DNA of 48,461 nucleotides. Source: Coriobacteriia bacterium. GTDB taxonomy: Bacteria > Actinomycetota > Coriobacteriia > WRKU01. Each line of letters begins with the position of its first letter. Position 1 is the first letter of the stretch. Both the position numbers and the translations under genes were made by a program. The notes under the pieces are model-generated. The model worked only from the letters and a program-made list of their open reading frames with translations, was not told the DNA's origin and ran no database searches. Positions 1 to 12,064 of this stretch are shown here, one piece after another. The stretch is from contig WRKU01000011.1 in the NCBI GenBank assembly GCA_009777935.1, forward strand, positions 1-48,461, given 5' to 3'.

Positions 1-108
1 CTGTTCCTCCTGTTTTAGCATCGGTACTCCTCCTTGCCTGTAGCCACAAGATGGAGCATATCTGACATTGCCTTACAGGGGGTCAATTATTCCGTTACAT
101 GGGGGTCA
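1..108 (-). mobile_element. End of an IS21-family-like insertion sequence, cut by the window edge
   Basis: Two copies of TTACA(T)GGGGGTCA, with GGGGGTCA at 78-85 and 101-108, lie 23 bp apart. Multiple short repeats of this kind are typical of IS21-family termini. A minus-strand ATG at 21-19, preceded by an AGGAGG ribosome binding site, opens a frame reading M-L-K-Q-E-E-Q that runs off the left edge, as expected for the start of the IstA transposase. The boundary is placed at 108 because the flanking coding remnant ends there. Family assignment rests on end structure and seven codons only, so it is tentative. Confidence 0.5.
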
Positions 109-372: not shown

Positions 373-1428
373 CTAGTTAATCTTTACGTATTCGCCGGTG
401 TTGTTGTCGATCTTGAAGACCTCATTGCCTCGCATGCCGAAGAGCTGACCGTCAAAGAGATAGAGGCTGTCATAGACTTCGGAGGAGAGGTGTGTTAACT
501 CGAGAGTATCAGGGTCGATATGCCACAGGCCATCACCCCTGTCTTCCTGTTTGGGCAAAAGAAGGTCTACTTGGGGGAAAGCCTCAAACGATGCGAATAT
601 GGTCCCGTCATCACAGATAGTCACTACGTCTGCATAGGTGTTTTCTGTAGGAACAGGTATACTGACCTGCTCTCCTGTAGATACATCCCACAAATCAATC
701 GCGGTCGTTCGAGTAGGGCACACTAGCAAGCGGTCTTTTTGCATCATAGCAACAAAAGGAAAACCACGTGGCTCTATCGCAAACAGAGATTCTTCGGAAA
801 AATCATCAAGCGATATTTTGATGACTGGAACGTTGGATCTATCTGGTTCATCCACTAAAAGGATTATTATCTCACCATTGGAAACGCAAAACTCCCTAAC
901 ACCCACGACAAGTGCTTCCCTTTCACCAGTCCTATAATTGAGAGCAATGAGCTCGTTTTCTTCGGTAAGATTCATGTCATGATCAAAGGTTGGGACCGTG
1001 CTATAGATAATGTAGTTTTCAAGAACCAGAAACTTATCCACATTATCCGCAAGCTTGCTATCTTTTCCTGTATTCATATCTCTTACATGCAGAACCTTCA
1101 TGTTTGGTCGTTCTTTGAAGAAAATGTGATTTCCCCAAACCTGAACAGGTGCCCCAACTCTCCCAAATACACTACGCTTTTCATCATCGGACATTTCTAT
1201 CAACTGTGTGGAAAACAAGCTTGCTTCTATCCAATAAAGCATATTATTTTCATAATCAAGGAAATTGATAAACGTGTAATTGTTATAGTTACCATGCGTT
1301 GGCGCGATGATATTAAATTCGCCAATCAACTCTTCTTCCAGGTCTTGATTGCAACCTAATAAAACCAGCATGCTAATCACACAGATTGATAGCAGTATGC
1401 CGAATAGAAACCTGTTCTTCTTGTCCAT
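373..1428 (-). CDS. Surface lipoprotein with beta-propeller-like repeats
   Basis: A 351-residue exported protein. The N terminus has a basic start, a hydrophobic stretch and a lipobox L-V-L-L-G-C with the modified cysteine at residue 26, so it should be lipid-anchored on the outer face of the membrane. The rest is rich in short beta-strand units ending in aromatic or Asp-Gly turns (for example DDGTIFASF, DGLWHIDPDT, DGQLFGMRGNEVF), resembling propeller-type DUF5050-like proteins. The ATG at 1428 is preferred over the adjoining GTG at 1431 because AGAGGA then lies 7 nt upstream. It follows the RHS toxin and its probable immunity gene on the same strand after a 100-bp gap and may belong to that island as a second immunity or surface factor; no direct evidence supports a function. 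It looks more AT-rich than the ribosomal genes. Confidence 0.7.
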   Translation of the reverse strand: MDKKNRFLFGILLSICVISMLVLLGCNQDLEEELIGEFNIIAPTHGNYNNYTFINFLDYENNMLYWIEASLFSTQLIEMSDDEKRSVFGRVGAPVQVWGNHIFFKERPNMKVLHVRDMNTGKDSKLADNVDKFLVLENYIIYSTVPTFDHDMNLTEENELIALNYRTGEREALVVGVREFCVSNGEIIILLVDEPDRSNVPVIKISLDDFSEESLFAIEPRGFPFVAMMQKDRLLVCPTRTTAIDLWDVSTGEQVSIPVPTENTYADVVTICDDGTIFASFEAFPQVDLLLPKQEDRGDGLWHIDPDTLELTHLSSEVYDSLYLFDGQLFGMRGNEVFKIDNNTGEYVKIN

Positions 1429-1528
1429 CACGCAATCCTCTTCCTGTGTTTATCGCATCCATCTTTGCGCGTCTTGGAGACCGTATACACCGTATATTTG
1501 GTTAGATTAGTCGCAATACAATAAACTT

Positions 1529-2131
1529 CTACTCATTTTTGTATCGTGGGTTATTTTTACAAAAATTGACCAAGGGACCACTTAAACTCGCACCTTCCCA
1601 AATTTCTTCTGAAAACCAATAGGAGCGAGAGTTTTGCAAAAACCCGCCATAGATAAAAATCAGATCCCAAGATGACAATCCGTCGAAGGGCTCTGTGGTT
1701 TTGCTTATAAAGCTATCAAATCTGTCTCTGTCGTAGATGATTTTAAAATAGTAACTTTTAGGACTGAAAGATTGCGTGCTATCCCAGTACAAAACAACAG
1801 TATCAATACTCGCTCGAGTAAATGCCGCGTTTGTTAAGTGTATCGCAAACTCCATAGCTTGTATAATTGCGTCTGCATGGTCCACCACATCGCCAGCTGC
1901 ATAAACAATAAGTGTGTCTTCTTCGACGCTATATTCACGAATTTTGTTGCCTCCATGAGGTGGCCCCGTTTCTCGCACAACACGCTTGAGAGTTCTACCC
2001 CAACTAAACATGTCGGGATTTTGCGATTCGACTACACTTACAATAAGTGGAGCAACAATTAACAGCGCCATAATTCCTGAAATGAGAAACCAGCTTTTGC
2101 CTTTCAAAATTTTTCTAATGCGTCTACTCAC
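1529..2131 (-). CDS. Membrane-anchored protein, candidate immunity protein for the RHS toxin
   Basis: A 200-residue protein I do not recognise as a named family. Residues 1-13 are basic (MSRRIRKILKGKS), residues 14-33 form one transmembrane segment, and the remaining ~165 residues should lie outside the membrane. The start is GTG at 2131, with GGAGAGGAG 9 nt upstream. The gene begins 32 nt after the stop of the RHS toxin on the same strand, which is the usual place for the immunity gene of a polymorphic toxin. The toxin tip is an L,D-transpeptidase-like domain expected to act on peptidoglycan outside the membrane, and an anchored extracytoplasmic partner fits protection at that site. The role is inferred from position and topology alone. 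Confidence 0.6.
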   Translation of the reverse strand: MSRRIRKILKGKSWFLISGIMALLIVAPLIVSVVESQNPDMFSWGRTLKRVVRETGPPHGGNKIREYSVEEDTLIVYAAGDVVDHADAIIQAMEFAIHLTNAAFTRASIDTVVLYWDSTQSFSPKSYYFKIIYDRDRFDSFISKTTEPFDGLSSWDLIFIYGGFLQNSRSYWFSEEIWEGASLSGPLVNFCKNNPRYKNE

Positions 2132-2163: not shown

Positions 2164-5100
2164 TTAGTATTCCACAATAAGCATCATAGGTTGCCACGCA
2201 CGATGCATTCTCAGTATATCTTGTATAGCTGCGGACTCAAGCTTGATACATCCGAGAGTAGAAGCGAACGCCCCACCTTGCGCCGAATCATAACTGTGCA
2301 ACCAAAAAGCACTCATGTCTCGGTTGCCGCCATTCACATCCGTGCTTGGGGTCAGCCTCACATAAGGACCAAACAATTCTCCGTACGATGCGTTATGCTT
2401 ATAAGCATCTTGAATTCGCCATTCAGTTGCACATATCACAAAATTACGCCTATCAATATTCATGCGTCGCTCACCCAAATACCATGTTCCTGGAGGTATT
2501 GGTCCATTATTTTGAGTGTATGAGAGTTTGCTGTTACCAGTAGTAGCTGGATATGACTTCAAGACAGTTTGTCCCTGTTTCATCGAAAGTGTGTTTCCAT
2601 TGAAAACAAGATGTGGCTTATATGCTGGTACTGGCTTAGGTTTGGGCTTAAACAGATTGCTAATCCAGTTTCCAACTGCCTTTAAGAACAGTCCATCAGG
2701 ATCGACATTATTGATTGGCTCACTAACACAGTAGGCATACGCGCTCAGCTCACCGTCAGCCTTGATAGGGTCTTTGCTGATGAAGGCGGCGATGGTGGGG
2801 TCGTAATAGCGTTGCGAGCAGTAGTAGAGCCCCGCCTCCGCATCCCACACATAGCCGGCATAACGTAAAGGCTGCAGATCAGCGATTACTTGAGCAAGCT
2901 CTTCGGCGATAAGCGTCGTGCCCATGACCTCTTCGGTGCGGATATTACCGTACGCGTCGTAATCGTAGCGCGCAAACGCCGAGCCACTGGTATCGCGCAG
3001 TTCACGCACGTCTCCTCGCCGGTCAGAGACAATCTCGAAAAACGTGTCTTCGCTCACGTCGTAGGACTGATAGAGCGCACCTATCGGCGTAGTGCTGTCC
3101 GCGTACAGATAGGTCAACGTCTGAGTGCTGTCAGCAGAGAAGGCCTCCAGTGCTAGCAGCCGCAAGCCATCGTAGACATATGAGGTGGTTGTCTCCACGC
3201 CTTCTTGCTCGATGGTCTTGCGGAGACGCTGGCCACCTCCGTCATAGATGTAGGCAGTCTCTCGCTCGTTGTCTACCACACCCGTTAACCGTGAGCCGTT
3301 CCACTCATACGTTGTCACCTCATCAAGGGCTTCGGCGCTCGTGCGCCGGCCAAGCTCGTCGTAAGTATAATTCGTAGTGATTGGCTCGCCCACCGGAGCT
3401 GTCTTGCTCGTATAAACCTCTATTCGGTCGATATCTACCAACTCGGTCGAGTTCGTGCGCAACCGAATAGTATGTGTTCCTTGCGGAAAGGATATTCTGC
3501 CAAGCGGCACATGATACGCAAGGCTTGGCCCAACATTACTGATAGTGGTAGCGGGTGTAGTGGATCCGTTAAGAAACACATCGAACGAGCCTAGATTGGT
3601 GTTTCGCATACCGTAAAAAACCACTTCACGACCGGTAACAGAAAAAGTTATCTCAGAACCTGCTACAACAGAACGTACCGTTACCCCACCAGAAAACACG
3701 GGGTTAGAAGACTGAGTCCACGTGCCCTTTTTAGTAATGCCTGAAGACTCGGCCTCGATTTTCTGGCTAGCATTTGTTTCCCATTTTCCGACAGCAGCTG
3801 GCGCACCTATAACCTCAATACGGTCAATCTCGACGAGGTCGGGTGTCCGTGTACGAATTTTGACAGTATGTGTACCCTGCGGAAACGTCACTCTACCTAA
3901 TTCGCGCTGATAAAGGACGGAAGACGAGGTTGCGCTACTAAAAGTTGCAGCCGGTGCCGGTGCATCATCAATGTACACTTCAAATGAGCCGAGGTGCGCA
4001 TTTGTAGCTCCAAAGAAAACCACCTCTGTTCCAGCAACCTGGAACGTCATTTCTGCGCCAGGATGAGTTTGTGCGCGCAAGGAAGATCCACCGGACAATA
4101 CCGAGGAAGTGGTTGTTGTCCAGTTTCCTCGTTTAGTTATAAGCGAATTATCCGATTCTATTTTCAGCTCAGGCTTATTCTCCCACTTGAGAAGAGAAGG
4201 GGACGTGCCGTAAATATCGATACGATCAATATGGACGCGCGCATTGGTCTTTGATACTATGCGTGCGGTATGGAAGCCTTGGTTCAGGTCAGTAACACGT
4301 CCTATCTCTTGCTGGTATACAACGTTTGGACCATGAGAGCTGATAGTAGCTCGCGGAGTAGTTTCGCCATCAAGATAAAGGTCAAACTCTCCGTGGGTTG
4401 GCGCCAGTGCCCCGATAAAACGAAGTTCATTACCGGTGAAAGCAAACGTAAGTTCAGAGCCTGCTACGTCAGTGCGCGTACACGTACCCCCTGAGAGTGC
4501 CGTGCTATTCGCACGCACCCAATTCTGGCCGTAAGTTAATGTGGCATTGTTGTCTTCGACGGCAATATTTTTTGTAGGAAGTTCTATTTCGGCCGCCTCG
4601 ACCGCTGTCTTAGATGCCACCCTCCCCATGTTGTCGTACGTGTAATGCGCTGTGCTAGGACCGCCGAATATTTCTGTGAGATTCTTCGAGATATCGAAGG
4701 CATACGTATCAGCAATATCGGCACCAATCTTGGCAGTTTTAAGTTCAGAGCGGTTCACGTTATAGCCATACGCTGCGCTCTGTTCGAGCCACGTATAGTT
4801 TGTGCCGGTAAGTTTGTTGTCGGATGCGTACGTGTACGTTGTGCTCCCTGTCTGTGAGAGCGCGCTATCAAACGCGAGGTGCCCCACACTGCTGTATGAC
4901 AGAAGATGGTTTGCCACACCAATAATACGCGAAACCGTGCGTCCCACTTCATCTCGCGTAACCGCAGTGGCAAGAGATGCTGTCTGGGTCGTATCACCGG
5001 ATACCGCCAACAAACCATACGCGAATTCGTCGCTATGTATCTCGTGAGTAGCCTGTACGCCGTTTGCAAAAGTATCGGTATACGTGGTTTTGAGATACGC

Positions 5101-8100
5101 ACTCTCGCCTGCTCCGACACGCTCATACGCAAAATCACGCACCCAGCCGCCAACATGTTCGATAGCCGATGCTACTTGTCCTTTAGCATCATACGTTGTT
5201 TCAGTTTCTTTGAGTACTGTGTCAGCACCGATGTGCACTTCACGTACAAGCCGTCCCAAATTATCGTAGGTGTACTCAATGGCCGTACCATCGTCTTGCA
5301 CAGATTGCGTGAGGCGTCCCGCACTGTCGTAATTGGCAGTTGTAATAAGGCCACCGTGGTCGCTCTCGATAACATCGCCACGCTCGTTATAACTATAGGC
5401 TGTTGTCACTCCGTCAAAATCTGTCTGTGCCAGTATCCATCCAAGCGTATTGTAGGTCGTGGTCGATGCTGCTTGCCCGGTAAGCTGCACGGCAACTTCA
5501 CGTTCGAGCAAATCATACGTGTGCGTATACTCAACGACAGGTTCTTTAGGATCGGCCGATTTTTCGGTAACCTTGACCGGCTTATTGTTGGCATTATAGG
5601 AAATCTGGGTGGTGGTTGCCGGCACCGGATTTGTCTCTGACTGCAGCTTCACATGCTTGATGACTCGACCCGCACTGTCAAAGGTCGTTTCAAAAAGAAC
5701 GCCGGCGTGCGCGCACCACACCACATTATTACTATCATCATACTCGTGCCATTTTCCCTGAAACGAGAGTTTAGTGTTATTTTCACGAATTGGCCGATTG
5801 AGACAATCGTATTGCGTCAGATCGAATACGGTTTCATGAACAGATTCTTCAGATACTGCTACCACATTACCCACATCGTCATACTCGATAGTTTCAATGC
5901 CTTCGATATCGCTACTATCATGTGCAATCTCTCGACCCAGCACGTCAAAAGTACGATCGGTACGCGAAAGTTCTTCGCCACCAGGCGCAAGAAGTTTTGA
6001 GAGAACATTGTTCCCCATAACATCGTAGGTCTCAACGATCCATTCATGCTTATCATCGTTGTTACCTGCGGTCTTATAGGTCTCTGTGACGCGTGATGTG
6101 CTGTCATATTTTATATGAGTAGTAACATCACCGGGGTCAGTTTGCGTGATCGGGCGTCCGACAATATCGTATGTCGCTTGTGTCGTTGTGCCAAGTGGCA
6201 TTATCTGCTCGACAAGATTACCAAAACCATCGTAGAGGTCAATCTGCGCGATATCTTGTGGCATAGTTTGCGCCGAGAGCTGTACATCTTTGTAGATTGT
6301 TTGCTGTGGTAAACCATTCGGAGCATGGTTGCCATACAAGATGGTTTCCCATTCATATGCGTCATTCACCTCTCGAATTGCACGACGCGTTTTAACAAGC
6401 TTGCTATCCGCATTATATTCGTATTCGGTTCTACTCTTTTCCCCTGAGGTACCGATAAGTTTTTCCTCAACAATTAAACGACCTTCGTTATCGTAGGCGA
6501 ACCACGTCACCCCTCTGCCCTCGTCAATCGTTTTGATGATATCGTTTTGATGATTATAAAAGTGTTCAGCAAGACCGCCTGCTTTATTAGTGCTACTAAG
6601 CAGGTTTCCTCTTCCATCATAAGTGAAAAGTTCTTCCGTTATTTGAGTCGTGTTCGATTTCCTGCCAAATGCGACCTTGTTATTGGGAAATTCTGCCACC
6701 GTCGGCGCCTGCGTTCCGATTAATTGGTTCTCAGAATTATAGCGAACATAGACTCCTTCATCGGCACCTGATGAAATGCTTGACCATATCACCTGTTGGG
6801 CCACGTTTATGAGATATTCGCTTCGCTCGTGACCTGCCGCAAATTCACCTTCAGGTGTAACTGATCCTTTGCTGAGAATAGTTCGTTTAGTGCTTGGATC
6901 AGCGGTGGCCACATAAGCTAAGGTGTGTCGTTGCGATGGGGCATCAGATGCGGTGTGTTCCGCGCTCAAAGACGAGACAAGGTATTCGATCTCTACGCTA
7001 TCTCCTGCCGCCGAGATATTCGTCAATCGTTGGTCGTCCATAACGTAAAGACGCGTAAGTTGTGCTTCAGTACCCGGATACTCGCATACACTGAGCATGC
7101 TGGTCATGGGAATATAGTTAATTTCACGCGTGCCTGCATCGGTCTCGTACACTGCCTCGATAGTTCCGGTATTTGTTATATTTAACTCAATGCTCTGTCC
7201 ATTGTGCGCAAGAATCGAGACTGCGTTACTACGTATGTCATAGTTCGTATACCTTTGTTGTCTGTCCTCTTCATAAAGCAGCTTGCCGTTGTGCCCATCA
7301 AATATTTTCAAACCTCCGTCAGGGAACTTGAGTTCATAAATCGCAAACGTTGAGTCTCCGCAACCATCACTTTCTTCGTAGTAGACAAGCTCTGCCTGCA
7401 TGCCGTTTGGCGAAATATATCGGCCATCTTGTGTTTTTGTAAAACTATATGAATTGCCGTCAGAACTCGTATAGATGGTAGCATCTCCCAGAAGCGAGAT
7501 ATTTTCCTCAAACCCAAACATCCACCCTTTGGGTAAGTAGGCACTTTCAAAATCACTGTCGCTTGTATATGTGCGACTCAGTACAGCATCAGGCCCCGCC
7601 GATGCAATGGCCAGGTCGACCGTCATAAGACGTGTCTCGGAACTCGAAAGAGCACCTTCGACCGTCTCATGAGCGATTTCGACGATAGGCACAAAACTGC
7701 GCTGTGTCACATCGCTTACTCGAATAGTGCGGTTTTCAAAGGTTGCTTGAACGGACGAAACGGTGCCCACTTCTATCGCATCGTGCTCCGAATAAGGACA
7801 AACTTTAAACCAGTAATTCTTGTTGTTATCGTACTGTCTATTATTAGCAGTCTTTCGATATAAGGGTCTTGGGTCATCACGAAAATCAACGCCAATGCCA
7901 CGGAAAGAATGAACTGCGGCAAGATTATCAAGTTGCCCCATCACGAACCGATTATGGACTTTATCATACACAACCGAGACTGAGCGATCGGTCGGCTGCC
8001 TATCGACATGCCATTGATTTACAACTTTTCCTGTCTTGAGGGAGACTTTGGTCATGCGTTTCGCCCCACCCCACTCGTAAAAGTAAAGGTTGCTCCCATC

Positions 8101-10584
8101 AGAAGTAACTCCATCAAAGTTTAGGTAGGGGGACTGTCCGGCTAAAGAATAGGTTTTGTCCTCGATGAATACACCGTGCTCATCATAGATACGTACCTTA
8201 ATGTTGGGGGAGGTAGAGCTTACCCTCGCCGCTGAATAAATATGGGTATCATCGGCAGCGAGCAAAACACCATTGGTCGGCCCCGTCACCTCCGCTCCAC
8301 TTCCGCGGCCAAACGGCGGCTTTGAAAGAGTCAATGTGGTCGGCACCGCCTTATCCATGATTGAACTAAGGACAAAACCCTGTATGTCTGCCGTACCGCC
8401 TCCAACACGTGTGACGTATCCGTCATAAAGCACGCCATTTTTTACGAAAGCACTCAAGGAAGTTGTTCCTGCCTGTGTAGTGGCAATCTTTTTGCCTGTG
8501 CCATAGGTCGGCAGGCCATTTGTCATGCCTGTCTTTTTGAACTGTACCCACTGGTCAGGTCCAGGATATGAGCTCCATTTTTTGACATACATGTCAGTGC
8601 CATCAAAAGCAACGACCCCTGCCCCGGCAGGATTTGAACCCACCGCACTAGGATACGTAAGCGTTGTTCTGGCAAGACGCGATTCGTCAGAGGGAGTGTT
8701 CCCATAGATATACGAATGACCGGCGAAGTTTTGCTTCAGCGCATCGATTTCGCTATCGGTCGGGAAAATGCCGCTACCTTCGCTTGACCACGTAGTAGCA
8801 CTTGGGCCCACCGTTTTCCCTACGATATTGTAGGCATTACCATCAAAAGTATAGACGAGATAACCCTTGGCATTAGGATCGGCATTCCAAGACAGATTGA
8901 TAATACCGCGTCCTTGCCCGTCACGATCATTTCTATTGTCAGCAATACCATCGTTGTTATGGTCAACCTCTTTGAACCACTCGGCGGATGCTTTAGTGGT
9001 AGCCTTGAGCCCGGTAACGGCCTTGATGTCAGCACGATATCTTACCTGAAATGTAGATTGTGTCACCCCTGACCACTCGGAGTAATACTTACGCCAGTGC
9101 GTGGTATTCTGTGATCCTCCTTCATCTTGATAGAAGGTAAATCGAGAAGGAGTATTGCCACCATTAATCCTAGCCTGCATGTAGTTTTTGAGATTGAAGA
9201 CGACCGGCTGATTACGAATAGTCGTCGTGGTGCTGGCAGCTATCCATGACACAACTCCTGGCATCGTATTCCAGGTATCATACACGCTGGGATTGCGATC
9301 GAGCTCCGCAACATACGTGGTCGTTGCTGCGTTTACATAATACTGATGAAACTGTTGAGCGTGCAGCTCTGCACGCTCTATCCGCATGCCTTTTAGGTTG
9401 GGCAGAACGAACATGGTAAGTGCACGATTATGCCCGGTCGACGAATCATAGTATCCAATCTTGAGCTCGTGAGTCCACTGATATGATGTCGTTGGATAGC
9501 GAGAGGAGGTATAGGTATCTTGGTGGCTCAGACCCCCTGCAGCCGCGATGCCTGAAAGAATCACCGGCGGATCGATACGCACCGGCCATACACGCGTGTT
9601 GTCTTGAATCCAGTCTCGATCGATGACGGCACGTAGCGTTGCCCATCCTTCGCCCCCATCCACCGCCTCCCAATAGACATCCTCACAGGCAATAAACTCG
9701 CCCTTTTCCTCATCGTAAAAGTTATCGGTTACTATCAGCCGTCCAATCTCAAGTACGGCCTCGCCCGTTTCGGGATCGATAAGTCGATATGAAGTACTTT
9801 CTTCGTCGTAAGCGAGTTCAAGACCCTCAAAGGTCAGACGAAAATCAAAAGTATGCTCATCGGTCGGTTGAGTGAGTATGAGTGTCTCTTTGATGCCCCA
9901 CCACATTGAGCGATATTCGAGGTCCACTCCCGGTGCCACATCGGTGTAGTAGGCAGTGTCGCCAAAAGCGAGCGGAACCGTGGTAGTCGCACCCGCATAC
10001 GTAAGGCTTACCTTCCATCCATCGCCCTGAATAATCGCAGCACCGTCATCACCGAAGGCACTGAACTCCATACCTTCCCTTGTCGAAAGCGGCGCAAACC
10101 CTCCGAACGTAGTGCTGGTCTCTCGTGAGGGAACCAGATTGGTCGCAATATCAATGTAACGGTCCTGTTGATCTTGGTAGTGAACCGGTCCAACTCCTAC
10201 AATTGCCTCGCGTGCGCCATCGCTAAGTTCATATATTTTTGCTGTTTCGGTGCGCTCTGCAAGAAGTTCGCGTACCTGCGTGGCGCTCTCATCGTATCCG
10301 GGCTCATCGGTTTGCACGTGCTCGGCAGGTCCGATACTTTCAGCAGGAGGAGCATAGGTAGCCTCCTCAGATAAATCAGCTAGCGAGGGGCCGCTCGGTT
10401 TGCTTGTAGGAGCATGCGAAAATTCCTCTGCGGCGCCTAAAGCCTCGATAATCTCTTCAGGAATATCTAACTGGGCAAATGCGTAGACCGGGAGTGAGAC
10501 AAAAAACATGACAGAAGCCATAACGAGCGCAATGCTTCGCAAAAATGTTGGCAATACGGATCCGTTATACGAGCGTTTCATCAT
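2164..10584 (-). CDS. Secreted RHS/YD-repeat polymorphic toxin with C-terminal L,D-transpeptidase-like tip
   Basis: A 2806-residue exported protein. Residues 1-37 form a Sec signal peptide ending AFA. In order follow: a DNRLRE-like beta domain (~350-520), a fibronectin-III-like domain with a D-rich loop DHNNDGIADN (~520-600), a propeller-like stretch (~600-880), a DUF6531-type opening of the RHS cage (~980-1065), many YD repeats (for example YDNEGRL, YDGFGNL; ~1320-1980), three tandem beta-sandwich domains (~2008-2392), more YD repeats, and the RHS-associated core (~2550-2627) ending in the hallmark DPDG. The last ~155 residues are a DUF2778/Tlde1-like L,D-transpeptidase with a GPIPPGTWYLG motif and H2763-x12-TLGC, nucleophile Cys2779. 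In this family the cage encloses the toxic tip; the tip is predicted to attack or remodel peptidoglycan peptides. Its ATG overlaps the stop of the chaperone-like gene upstream (TAATG), so the two are translationally coupled. Confidence 0.88.
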   Translation of the reverse strand: MMKRSYNGSVLPTFLRSIALVMASVMFFVSLPVYAFAQLDIPEEIIEALGAAEEFSHAPTSKPSGPSLADLSEEATYAPPAESIGPAEHVQTDEPGYDESATQVRELLAERTETAKIYELSDGAREAIVGVGPVHYQDQQDRYIDIATNLVPSRETSTTFGGFAPLSTREGMEFSAFGDDGAAIIQGDGWKVSLTYAGATTTVPLAFGDTAYYTDVAPGVDLEYRSMWWGIKETLILTQPTDEHTFDFRLTFEGLELAYDEESTSYRLIDPETGEAVLEIGRLIVTDNFYDEEKGEFIACEDVYWEAVDGGEGWATLRAVIDRDWIQDNTRVWPVRIDPPVILSGIAAAGGLSHQDTYTSSRYPTTSYQWTHELKIGYYDSSTGHNRALTMFVLPNLKGMRIERAELHAQQFHQYYVNAATTTYVAELDRNPSVYDTWNTMPGVVSWIAASTTTTIRNQPVVFNLKNYMQARINGGNTPSRFTFYQDEGGSQNTTHWRKYYSEWSGVTQSTFQVRYRADIKAVTGLKATTKASAEWFKEVDHNNDGIADNRNDRDGQGRGIINLSWNADPNAKGYLVYTFDGNAYNIVGKTVGPSATTWSSEGSGIFPTDSEIDALKQNFAGHSYIYGNTPSDESRLARTTLTYPSAVGSNPAGAGVVAFDGTDMYVKKWSSYPGPDQWVQFKKTGMTNGLPTYGTGKKIATTQAGTTSLSAFVKNGVLYDGYVTRVGGGTADIQGFVLSSIMDKAVPTTLTLSKPPFGRGSGAEVTGPTNGVLLAADDTHIYSAARVSSTSPNIKVRIYDEHGVFIEDKTYSLAGQSPYLNFDGVTSDGSNLYFYEWGGAKRMTKVSLKTGKVVNQWHVDRQPTDRSVSVVYDKVHNRFVMGQLDNLAAVHSFRGIGVDFRDDPRPLYRKTANNRQYDNNKNYWFKVCPYSEHDAIEVGTVSSVQATFENRTIRVSDVTQRSFVPIVEIAHETVEGALSSSETRLMTVDLAIASAGPDAVLSRTYTSDSDFESAYLPKGWMFGFEENISLLGDATIYTSSDGNSYSFTKTQDGRYISPNGMQAELVYYEESDGCGDSTFAIYELKFPDGGLKIFDGHNGKLLYEEDRQQRYTNYDIRSNAVSILAHNGQSIELNITNTGTIEAVYETDAGTREINYIPMTSMLSVCEYPGTEAQLTRLYVMDDQRLTNISAAGDSVEIEYLVSSLSAEHTASDAPSQRHTLAYVATADPSTKRTILSKGSVTPEGEFAAGHERSEYLINVAQQVIWSSISSGADEGVYVRYNSENQLIGTQAPTVAEFPNNKVAFGRKSNTTQITEELFTYDGRGNLLSSTNKAGGLAEHFYNHQNDIIKTIDEGRGVTWFAYDNEGRLIVEEKLIGTSGEKSRTEYEYNADSKLVKTRRAIREVNDAYEWETILYGNHAPNGLPQQTIYKDVQLSAQTMPQDIAQIDLYDGFGNLVEQIMPLGTTTQATYDIVGRPITQTDPGDVTTHIKYDSTSRVTETYKTAGNNDDKHEWIVETYDVMGNNVLSKLLAPGGEELSRTDRTFDVLGREIAHDSSDIEGIETIEYDDVGNVVAVSEESVHETVFDLTQYDCLNRPIRENNTKLSFQGKWHEYDDSNNVVWCAHAGVLFETTFDSAGRVIKHVKLQSETNPVPATTTQISYNANNKPVKVTEKSADPKEPVVEYTHTYDLLEREVAVQLTGQAASTTTYNTLGWILAQTDFDGVTTAYSYNERGDVIESDHGGLITTANYDSAGRLTQSVQDDGTAIEYTYDNLGRLVREVHIGADTVLKETETTYDAKGQVASAIEHVGGWVRDFAYERVGAGESAYLKTTYTDTFANGVQATHEIHSDEFAYGLLAVSGDTTQTASLATAVTRDEVGRTVSRIIGVANHLLSYSSVGHLAFDSALSQTGSTTYTYASDNKLTGTNYTWLEQSAAYGYNVNRSELKTAKIGADIADTYAFDISKNLTEIFGGPSTAHYTYDNMGRVASKTAVEAAEIELPTKNIAVEDNNATLTYGQNWVRANSTALSGGTCTRTDVAGSELTFAFTGNELRFIGALAPTHGEFDLYLDGETTPRATISSHGPNVVYQQEIGRVTDLNQGFHTARIVSKTNARVHIDRIDIYGTSPSLLKWENKPELKIESDNSLITKRGNWTTTTSSVLSGGSSLRAQTHPGAEMTFQVAGTEVVFFGATNAHLGSFEVYIDDAPAPAATFSSATSSSVLYQRELGRVTFPQGTHTVKIRTRTPDLVEIDRIEVIGAPAAVGKWETNASQKIEAESSGITKKGTWTQSSNPVFSGGVTVRSVVAGSEITFSVTGREVVFYGMRNTNLGSFDVFLNGSTTPATTISNVGPSLAYHVPLGRISFPQGTHTIRLRTNSTELVDIDRIEVYTSKTAPVGEPITTNYTYDELGRRTSAEALDEVTTYEWNGSRLTGVVDNERETAYIYDGGGQRLRKTIEQEGVETTTSYVYDGLRLLALEAFSADSTQTLTYLYADSTTPIGALYQSYDVSEDTFFEIVSDRRGDVRELRDTSGSAFARYDYDAYGNIRTEEVMGTTLIAEELAQVIADLQPLRYAGYVWDAEAGLYYCSQRYYDPTIAAFISKDPIKADGELSAYAYCVSEPINNVDPDGLFLKAVGNWISNLFKPKPKPVPAYKPHLVFNGNTLSMKQGQTVLKSYPATTGNSKLSYTQNNGPIPPGTWYLGERRMNIDRRNFVICATEWRIQDAYKHNASYGELFGPYVRLTPSTDVNGGNRDMSAFWLHSYDSAQGGAFASTLGCIKLESAAIQDILRMHRAWQPMMLIVEY
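2167..2637 (-). other. Tlde1/DUF2778-like L,D-transpeptidase toxin domain (tip of the RHS protein)
   Basis: This segment encodes the variable tip after the RHS core. It begins with LVFNGNTLSMKQGQ, passes SYPATTGNSK and GPIPPGTWYLG, and ends with WLHSYDSAQGGAFASTLGCI, which carries the His and Cys of the L,D-transpeptidase catalytic motif. Tlde1 effectors of Gram-negative type VI systems use this fold to cut or exchange D-amino acids in stem peptides. Here it is carried by an RHS shell with a Sec signal in what appears to be a monoderm. The segment is visibly more AT-rich than the RHS core beside it. Confidence 0.7.
3405..4566 (-). repeat. Three tandem copies of a ~115-residue beta-sandwich domain inside the RHS protein
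   Basis: Copies lie at about 4203-4566, 3803-4170 and 3405-3766. Each shares the same order of motifs: a hydrophobic opening with GNW/GTW, SGG followed by a cysteine- or valine-rich strand, AGSE(L/I/M)TF, a phrase of type E(L/V)(R/V)F(I/F/Y)GA, a GSFDVYID-like strand, LGR(V/I)..PQGTHT, and a terminal (H/E/D)IDRI(E/D)(V/I)YG. They resemble galactose- or carbohydrate-binding modules. The array interrupts the YD repeats just before the last part of the cage and may decorate the outer surface for target binding. Confidence 0.75.
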
Positions 10585-11183
10585 TACACATCCCTCAAAC
10601 TCTCCAGCAACTCATCTATTGCCTCTGCGCGCTTCTTGCCAAGTAAGTCAGCAATAACTTGGGCACGCGCTTTCTCAAAATCAATGGGATAGCGAGATTT
10701 GTTCGTCTCGTAGTAGTTGTGCAACTCTGCTTCGGTCAGGTCCTTTTCATCTACAAGGCTCTTGGCAAGCTCGTTAATGATGATGTTCGCCTCAAGGTTA
10801 CGCTTAAGCTGTTTCTCGTCGACACCTTTTATTGAAAGATAGTATTCAAAATGATCGCGGCCGCCATAGCCGCTCTCGATGGCATGGTAGCTTTTCTCAA
10901 ACTGCTCAGTCACGTCTTCAATACCACGTTTTTTCGCCTCTGCAACAAGCAGATTTCTATCTTCAAGATGACGGCGAATCCGTTCGCGCAGTTCATCTGC
11001 AGATATCGTCGCGTATTCTCCCTCAAAAAGCTCGGGTGATTGCTCTTGCAAATACGAAATTTCGGCCTCAATCTCCGCGTCAGTAATACGTGTCGAAGAC
11101 CATGGACCGATAGATAAAATATTGAGTGTAAGAAGGACTGCAGTAACCGCAATTACGATAACAGCCGCCACGCCCGCTGTCAT
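10584..11183 (-). CDS. SurA/PrsA N-domain-like membrane-anchored chaperone lacking a PPIase domain
   Basis: A 199-residue protein. Residues 3-25 are one hydrophobic segment with no clear cleavage site, so it is probably a membrane anchor with the rest outside. Residues ~33-170 match the helical SurA_N/PpiC chaperone core (ISADELRERIRRHLEDRNLL, then KGVDEKQLKRNLEANIIINEL, then LTEAELHNYYETNKSRYP). The parvulin domain that normally follows is missing: the protein ends with a C-terminal helix (LLGKKRAEAIDELLESL). Its stop codon overlaps the RHS start by one base (TAATG), so it is produced in fixed ratio with the toxin and may hold or fold it during export. No good Shine-Dalgarno precedes the ATG at 11183; no upstream in-frame ATG was seen. 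Confidence 0.75.
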   Translation of the reverse strand: MTAGVAAVIVIAVTAVLLTLNILSIGPWSSTRITDAEIEAEISYLQEQSPELFEGEYATISADELRERIRRHLEDRNLLVAEAKKRGIEDVTEQFEKSYHAIESGYGGRDHFEYYLSIKGVDEKQLKRNLEANIIINELAKSLVDEKDLTEAELHNYYETNKSRYPIDFEKARAQVIADLLGKKRAEAIDELLESLRDV

Positions 11184-11262
11184 AAGCAGGGTGCGCGTAC
11201 CACTATCTTGTTTGCCCTCGATGAAACACCACCCATTTCTGTACGGCGCTCATTCGTGCTTT

Positions 11263-11280
11263 ATTGTAACAGAGGTTACA
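11263..11280 (-). promoter_or_regulatory. Possible -10 box overlapped by a dyad before the chaperone-RHS operon
   Basis: A perfect 6-bp dyad, TGTAAC-agag-GTTACA, spans 11265-11280 and overlaps TACAAT (minus strand, 11268-11263), which could be a -10 box. No consensus -35 lies 17 bp upstream. The dyad could be an operator, or a weak hairpin after map. It is the only clear structured site in the 131-bp gap between map and the RHS operon. Confidence 0.35.
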
Positions 11281-11314
11281 GCGATTGGGGGAAAGTGGTG
11301 ACCGAAGTGTCGCC

Positions 11315-12064
11315 CTATATCACGGTAAGAATCAGTGGTGCATCTTTGCCGATGGCGACGGTGTGTTCGATCTGGGCACAGCGCGAGCCATCTTGCGTGA
11401 CGACCGTCCAGCCGTCATCGCGGACCTGTACGCGAAAGTCTCCGGCGGTAAGCATCGGCTCGATGGCGAGCGTCATACCCGCGCGCAGACGCGGACCAGT
11501 GCCCGGTTTACCCACGTTGGGGACGCTCGGCTCCTCGTGCATCTTGGCACCGATGCCGTGCCCGCAGTACTCGCGCACCGCACCGTATCCCGCTTCTTCG
11601 GCAGTGGCCTGAATCGCTGCGCTCACGTCACCAAGCCGATTACCCTCGACACACCGGTCGATAGCCGCATAGAGCGCCGCGCGCGTCGTATCGATGAGCC
11701 GTTGTGACTCATCATCGATGGTGCCGATAGCGAACGTGTCAGCGTTATCACCGACGTAACCCTGATAGATTGCGCCGACATCAACGGTCAGAATATCGCC
11801 ATCACTCAACACGCGCTCAGCTGAGGGGATGCCGTGCACGAGTTCATCGTTTATCGAGGCACATATCGTCGCAGGATAGCCGAGGTAGCCCTTGAACGCC
11901 GACACGGCCCCGTGTTCACGAATGATATCCTCAGCGATGTGGTCGAGCTCCAAAGTAGACACGCCCGGGCAGGCTGCCGCGCCGGTTGCCTGCAAAGCGA
12001 GAATGCTGATACGCCCCGCCTCAGCCATTAACTTGAGTTCATGACGCGATTTCCTCGTTATCAT
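11315..12064 (-). CDS. map: Methionine aminopeptidase, type I
   Basis: Removes the initiator methionine from nascent cytosolic proteins. At 249 residues it has the bare type I catalytic core without the N-terminal extension of some actinobacterial paralogues. The two-metal site is intact: Asp95 (LTVDVGA), Asp106 (VGDNAD), His169 (CGHGIG), Glu202 (AIEPM) and Glu233 (QIEHT), with the substrate-side His77 in VHGIP. It lies 31 nt after adk in the expected secY-adk-map order. In most relatives infA, rpmJ and the alpha operon come next; here the RHS island follows, so map is the last housekeeping gene of the run. Confidence 0.96.
   Translation of the reverse strand: MITRKSRHELKLMAEAGRISILALQATGAAACPGVSTLELDHIAEDIIREHGAVSAFKGYLGYPATICASINDELVHGIPSAERVLSDGDILTVDVGAIYQGYVGDNADTFAIGTIDDESQRLIDTTRAALYAAIDRCVEGNRLGDVSAAIQATAEEAGYGAVREYCGHGIGAKMHEEPSVPNVGKPGTGPRLRAGMTLAIEPMLTAGDFRVQVRDDGWTVVTQDGSRCAQIEHTVAIGKDAPLILTVI

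What the first reader, a model, noticed from the sequence alone, without database searches (positions are those of the whole stretch)
2164..11183. RHS polymorphic toxin with an L,D-transpeptidase tip, chaperone and candidate immunity protein in one operon
Seen: a Sec signal, RHS cage ending DPDG, and a tip with GPIPPGTWYLG and H2763/Cys2779. A SurA-N-like protein is coupled upstream (TAATG), and a single-pass membrane protein follows by 32 nt. Known: Tlde1/DUF2778 effectors attack peptidoglycan stem peptides, mostly via type VI systems in diderms. Inference: a monoderm contact or secreted antibacterial toxin aimed at rival cell walls, with a wall-side immunity protein. This combination is one I do not recall as described in this lineage.
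Basis: partly seen in the sequence, partly recalled or inferred. Interest (0 to 1): 0.78.

Follow-up and report, generated by a model that had tools for sequence, protein, structure and literature searches.

The report
Secreted RHS toxin with wall-enzyme tip
A bacterium without an outer membrane carries a very large secreted protein whose interchangeable tip looks like an enzyme that cuts cell-wall peptides, next to a gene that probably protects the producer; it is a new example of a toxin type predicted from genomes in 2012.

Summary
A 2806-residue protein with a Sec-type signal has a WapA-like DNRLRE domain, YD/RHS repeats, an RHS core ending PINNVDPDGL, and a 166-residue tip. Scanned alone, the tip matches Pfam YkuD (L,D-transpeptidase) above the curated cut-off and Tlde1_dom below it, and keeps the motif His and Cys. 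Upstream and translationally coupled is a short membrane-anchored SurA_N protein; 32 nt downstream is a single-pass protein with no known domain.

It too is followed directly by a homolog of the downstream gene, there a lipoprotein. RHS genes with other tips have unrelated followers. So tip and follower travel together, as toxin and immunity genes do, while the SurA_N gene stays with this RHS clade whatever the tip.

Three jelly-roll modules inserted in the cage region also occur in wall amidases and L,D-transpeptidases of the same order, which fits a wall target.

The kind is known: Zhang et al. 2012 listed RHS toxins with L,D-peptidase tips, in Actinobacteria too, some with secreted or membrane immunity. 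Apparently new: the immunity family, the linked SurA_N gene, the modules. No activity was tested.

The parts
10584..11183 (-). SurA_N/PrsA-like membrane-anchored protein without a clear PPIase domain (199 aa; the true start may lie a few codons upstream, as the open frame is 221 codons)
   Evidence: TAATG overlap with the RHS gene
2164..10584 (-). Secreted RHS polymorphic toxin, 2806 aa
10474..10584 (-). Sec-type signal peptide, residues 1-37
   Evidence: sequence and hydropathy
9067..9522 (-). DNRLRE domain, residues 355-506
   Evidence: NCBIfam NF033679, 51.6 bits
3415..4572 (-). Three tandem CE2_N-like jelly-roll modules, residues about 2005-2390, absent from the cage homologs in G006, G008 and G015
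2689..2961 (-). RHS-associated core, residues 2542-2632, ending in PINNVDPDGL (2689-2718), the position of the likely cleavage motif
   Evidence: TIGR03696; motif scan
2167..2664 (-). L,D-transpeptidase (YkuD-type) tip, residues 2641-2806
2296..2298 (-). Codon of predicted catalytic His2763
2248..2250 (-). Codon of predicted catalytic Cys2779
1529..2131 (-). Candidate immunity protein: N-terminal transmembrane segment and extracytoplasmic alpha+beta domain, no known family

Best explanation
This is an operon for a Sec-exported RHS polymorphic toxin whose interchangeable C-terminal tip is an L,D-transpeptidase/carboxypeptidase-type enzyme. Proposed course: the coupled membrane-anchored SurA_N protein helps the 2806-residue protein fold after export; the RHS shell encloses the tip; cleavage near the PINNVDPDGL motif frees it; outside the cell the tip attacks the tetrapeptide stems of a neighbour's peptidoglycan through Cys2779 and His2763. 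The 200-aa membrane-anchored protein, facing the wall, blocks the tip in the producer and its kin. Shown by sequence: domain order, tip homology, motif residues, tip and follower occurring together at two unrelated sites, SurA_N linkage. Inferred: export, cleavage, enzyme activity, killing and neutralisation.
For: Tip over the YkuD cut-off, as are both relatives (25.6 and 32.2 bits). His and GC with the GPIPxG motif kept in three diverged sequences. A weak model of the tip finds almost only L,D-transpeptidases in the PDB (49 of the 50 matches listed). The same tip recurs on an orphan cassette in G031/JAJFTR010000104.1, followed directly, with overlapping frames, by a homolog of the follower; extracytoplasmic parts align at Smith-Waterman 69, Z 9.0, 0 of 5000 shuffles as high, best of 269 background pieces 57. 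Among 400 genomes of the class the follower family was found at these two places only; two other weak hits lie in unrelated genes. Cage homologs with other tips (Amidase_6; PG_binding_1 plus an unknown domain; a CHAP-like tip) have other followers. GC falls from 0.57 (host genes) to 0.49 (cage region), 0.44 (tip) and 0.41 (follower), as for an acquired cassette.
Against: Only two tip-follower pairs are known, and the follower homology is weak (22% identity; phmmer E 0.001 in a small set). The structure models have low confidence (mean pLDDT 46 and 57). The genome is a MAG (86% complete) and the locus sits at a contig end. Whether a Sec-secreted RHS shell can deliver a wall enzyme is unproven, and no activity was measured.
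Confidence: 0.78

Rival explanations
1. The tip is an anchoring enzyme: the L,D-transpeptidase fixes the RHS protein to, or remodels, the producer's own wall, and the protein is an adhesin or surface structure, not a toxin.
For: YkuD domains are normal wall enzymes, and relatives in the same order fuse the same CE2_N modules to YkuD.
Against: The tip follows a cleavage-type motif and is replaced by unrelated domains in cage homologs. It occurs on an orphan cassette together with the follower gene. The host has a separate ordinary YkuD protein on another contig.
Confidence: 0.1
2. The tip is a real toxin, but the 200-aa protein is not its immunity protein: it may be an accessory secreted factor, with immunity given by another gene such as the 352-aa lipoprotein at 373-1431.
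For: The 200-aa protein has no family match. The next gene also encodes a lipoprotein-like product.
Against: The follower is the only neighbour shared by both L,D-transpeptidase loci. The 352-aa lipoprotein has no relative in 40 related genomes, G031 included.
Confidence: 0.12
3. The locus is a decayed or silent remnant that is no longer used.
For: It lies near a contig end beside an IS21-like fragment, and orphan cassettes are common in the class.
Against: The frame is intact over 2806 codons, the motif residues are kept, and the junctions to both neighbours are tight.
Confidence: 0.06

Closest known systems
Tox-LD-peptidase RHS polymorphic toxins (Zhang et al. 2012, PMC3482391)
   Same: RHS repeats, C-terminal L,D-peptidase with H and C motif residues, secretion-pathway export, linked immunity gene of which some are secreted or TM; listed in Actinobacteria.
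   Different: The immunity types listed there are Imm16 and Imm57; the protein here matches no Pfam family. In the held text of that paper a search for 'chaperone', 'PpiC' and 'peptidyl-prolyl' found nothing.
Tlde1/Tlde1a type VI effectors (PMC9638812)
   Same: H...(S/T)xGC-type motif and L,D-transpeptidase-like fold class; attack on tetrapeptide stems is the model for the mechanism.
   Different: Below the Tlde1_dom cut-off (21 vs 30.1 bits); carried by a Sec-type RHS protein in an organism without an Omp85 match, not by a type VI system.
WapA-type secreted RHS/YD proteins of Gram-positives
   Same: Signal peptide, DNRLRE domain, YD repeats, C-terminal toxin followed by an immunity gene (from general knowledge).
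   Different: Well-studied WapA tips are nucleases acting in the cytoplasm (general knowledge); this tip would act on the wall.
PrsA/SurA extracytoplasmic foldases
   Same: SurA_N_3 domain with an N-terminal membrane segment; NCBIfam PRK00059 peptidylprolyl isomerase model gives a partial match (40.6 bits).
   Different: About 200 aa, without a clear parvulin domain (Rotamase_2 only 15.7 bits against a cut-off of 27), and linked to RHS genes.

Membership tests
RHS polymorphic toxin | RHS/YD repeats and RHS-associated core | tested here: met
RHS polymorphic toxin | Variable tip after a conserved core: cage homologs with different tips | tested here: met
RHS polymorphic toxin | Conserved motif at the core end for release of the tip | tested here: met
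   PINNVDPDGL, the only such motif in the protein; cleavage itself not testable here
RHS polymorphic toxin | Cognate immunity gene directly downstream, changing with the tip | tested here: met
   two of two loci with this tip; other followers beside other tips; protection not tested
YkuD / L,D-transpeptidase catalytic domain (PF03734) | Score above the curated cut-off with His and Cys of the motif | tested here: met
   27.9 bits vs 23.4; His2763 and Cys2779
YkuD / L,D-transpeptidase catalytic domain (PF03734) | Confident predicted fold | tested here: inconclusive
   mean pLDDT 46; the PDB matches are nearly all L,D-transpeptidases but none reaches E 0.001
Tlde1 (PF10908, DUF2778) | Score above the curated cut-off | tested here: not met
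   21 bits vs 30.1
Tlde1 (PF10908, DUF2778) | Delivery by a type VI system | tested here: inconclusive
   Sec-type signal and no Omp85 match in the genome argue against it; type VI genes were not searched for
Known immunity families (Imm16, Imm57 and others) | Match to a family profile | tested here: not met
   no Pfam, NCBIfam, PHROG or PADLOC match
PrsA/SurA chaperone | SurA_N domain with membrane anchor | tested here: met
   24.9 bits vs 27.2 here, but orthologs score 36.5-61.1
PrsA/SurA chaperone | Parvulin PPIase domain | tested here: not met
   Rotamase_2 15.7 bits vs 27; length about 200 aa

The most novel reading that the evidence does not exclude
A lineage-specific weapon of an actinobacterial order: RHS shells exported by Sec, each clade keeping its own membrane-anchored SurA_N foldase, carrying wall-binding jelly-roll modules shared with the lineage's own wall hydrolases, and swapping wall-cutting tips that are each paired with a membrane- or lipid-anchored immunity protein on the outer face of the membrane.
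Probability: 0.35. Interest if true: 0.55.

Novelty: new member of a known kind. Interest (0 to 1): 0.4.

Why it matters
It gives a concrete pair, with a second independent copy, for testing whether monoderm bacteria use RHS proteins against peptidoglycan, which has been a genomic prediction since 2012. It also suggests a dedicated foldase for secreted RHS proteins and a new immunity family.

Tried and rejected
Searches that led nowhere: tip in plasmids, in the first genome-contig scan and in IMG/VR; tip profile in 297 genomes of the phylum (own genome only); follower in plasmids, phages, IMG/VR and 397 genomes of the phylum; 352-aa lipoprotein in relatives. The follower hits in G146 and G375 and the tip hit in G233 were rejected: they fall in or beside a LytR-type protein, a leucyl-tRNA synthetase and an alpha/beta hydrolase. 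The phage record MT836786 was set aside: it carries a free-standing YkuD protein among bacterial housekeeping genes such as a DNA polymerase III alpha chain. PDB sequence searches gave no useful match. The fold search of the follower gave only mixed weak matches. Promoter and terminator scans were at background. A script meant to measure the module insertion by pairwise alignment failed; the insertion rests.

Full report
What is there. On the minus strand of the window, after the map gene (methionine aminopeptidase) that follows adk and secY, lie a 199-aa gene (10584-11183), a 2806-aa gene (2164-10584) and a 200-aa gene (1529-2131), then a 352-aa lipoprotein-like gene and an IS21-like fragment at the contig end. 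The first two overlap as TAATG; the third starts 32 nt after the RHS stop with a Shine-Dalgarno-like sequence. The order of the genes speaks for one operon; transcription was not tested, and the promoter scan was at background.

The RHS protein. It has a Sec-type signal, a DNRLRE domain at 355-506, YD/RHS repeats, and an RHS-associated core at 2542-2632. The core ends in PINNVDPDGL, the only P....DP.G[LMI] motif in the protein. From general knowledge, this is the place where RHS proteins are cut to free the tip; cleavage here is inferred.

The tip. Residues 2641-2806 scanned alone match YkuD at 27.9 bits (cut-off 23.4) and Tlde1_dom at 21 bits (cut-off 30.1). In the scan of the whole protein only the weaker Tlde1 match was listed. 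His2763 and Cys2779 stand 16 residues apart in H...STLGC. The Tlde1 paper gives the motif as HXX14-17-(S/T)HGCh, so the middle His of HGC is Leu here; the relatives have TKGC and SAGC. AlphaFold from a two-row alignment was poor (pLDDT 46), yet 49 of the 50 PDB matches listed were L,D-transpeptidases, none with E below 0.001. The safe filing is a YkuD-type domain, related to but not shown to be in Tlde1 proper.

The second copy. The tip is rare. In 400 genomes of the class the tip search gave one convincing hit, in G031, of another family; a genome-contig scan found the same contig as JAJFTR010000104.1, titled Actinomycetes bacterium. There the tip sits on an orphan RHS cassette of 195 aa, followed directly, with a short overlap, by a 195-aa gene and then another orphan cassette end. 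That gene is a relative of the window's 200-aa protein: BLASTP 6e-5 for the single comparison; the parts outside the membrane align at score 69 against a shuffle mean of 27.9 (Z 9.0, 0 of 5000), and the best of 269 background pieces scores 57. It begins with a lipobox-like VVGC, while the window's protein begins with a positively charged stretch and one hydrophobic segment, so both would face the wall. The profile of the two proteins found no further real member in the class (two weak hits rejected) or in 397 genomes of the phylum. That profile contains both sequences, so its own hits are not independent evidence; the independent evidence is.

Does the follower go with the cage or the tip? The RHS search in 40 relatives found cage homologs in the same order and class. 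G006 has an Amidase_6 tip, G008 a PG_binding_1 domain plus an unknown domain, G015 a CHAP-like tip (below cut-off); orphan cassettes carry weak zinc phospholipase C-like or unknown tips. None of their neighbours resembles the window's 200-aa protein. G009, the nearest cage homolog (57% identity), is cut by its contig end before the tip.

The SurA_N gene behaves the opposite way. In G009 it lies directly upstream of the RHS gene; in G006 and G008 it lies after the RHS gene and its follower. All four short versions (199-242 aa) found in the order are beside RHS genes, whereas the other hits examined lie in longer frames or in unrelated frames with no RHS signature within 1.5 kb. The orthologs pass the SurA_N_3 cut-off. 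The f5 genomes G015 and G017 do not show it beside their RHS genes. This fits a helper of the shell, not of one tip. It is linkage, not proof of a folding role.

The inserted modules. Residues 2005-2390 hold three tandem CE2_N-like modules, 38-46% identical. Cage homologs jump from residue 1990 to 2405 with 46 nt between, so this is an insertion. The same modules occur three times before a YkuD domain in G006 and G008 and beside an Amidase_2 domain in G006 and G011. Modules shared with secreted wall enzymes suggest binding to the wall, of the producer or of the target; which one cannot be told.

Host. No Omp85 match in the genome, while seven control genomes ring. The genome is 86% complete, so absence is good but not final evidence for a monoderm. 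The host has one other YkuD protein, of the ordinary kind, so its own wall plausibly contains the substrate and the producer would need protection. GC falls from 0.57 in the host genes to 0.49, 0.44 and 0.41 in cage, tip and follower.

Literature. Zhang et al. 2012 (PMC3482391) lists Tox-LD-peptidase, with RHS repeats, in Actinobacteria among others, predicts attack on the wall, and states that a subset of the linked immunity proteins are secreted or TM proteins. The Tlde1a structure paper (PMC9638812) supplies the enzymatic model. A search for papers with Coriobacteriia and Rhs, and one with WapA, PrsA and Rhs, found none in the held library. The kind is known; this is a new member with an immunity family that matches no profile, and with a linked foldase gene that I did not find described.

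Verdict. Function is inferred throughout.

Noticed in passing
window 3415-4572 (-), residues 2005-2390 of the RHS protein: Three tandem CE2_N-like jelly-roll modules inserted in the cage region; the same modules are fused to YkuD and Amidase_2 wall enzymes in the same order (L077, L078, L053).
   Followed up: yes
L018 6747-15620 and L019 6989-15829 (G000:C3): The same genome carries two more RHS genes of another cage type, 2957 and 2946 aa, with tips that match no Pfam family and small downstream genes.
   Followed up: partly
L063, L064, L065 (G015, G017): Long arrays of orphan RHS tip cassettes with interleaved small genes beside a full RHS gene, one with a CHAP-like tip.
   Followed up: partly
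window 373-1431 (-): 352-aa lipoprotein-like protein after the candidate immunity gene, with no Pfam or NCBIfam match and no relative in 40 related genomes.
   Followed up: partly
window 1-100: IS21-like element end with the start of a transposase frame at the contig edge.
   Followed up: no
window 11183-11315: The toxin operon sits right after map at the end of the secY-adk-map ribosomal-protein cluster, an unusual place for a polymorphic toxin.
   Followed up: no
L012 6689-7423 (+), MT836786.1: A record deposited as a bacteriophage carries bacterial housekeeping genes and a free-standing YkuD/Tlde1-like protein followed by small membrane proteins; it looks like a bacterial contig.
   Followed up: partly
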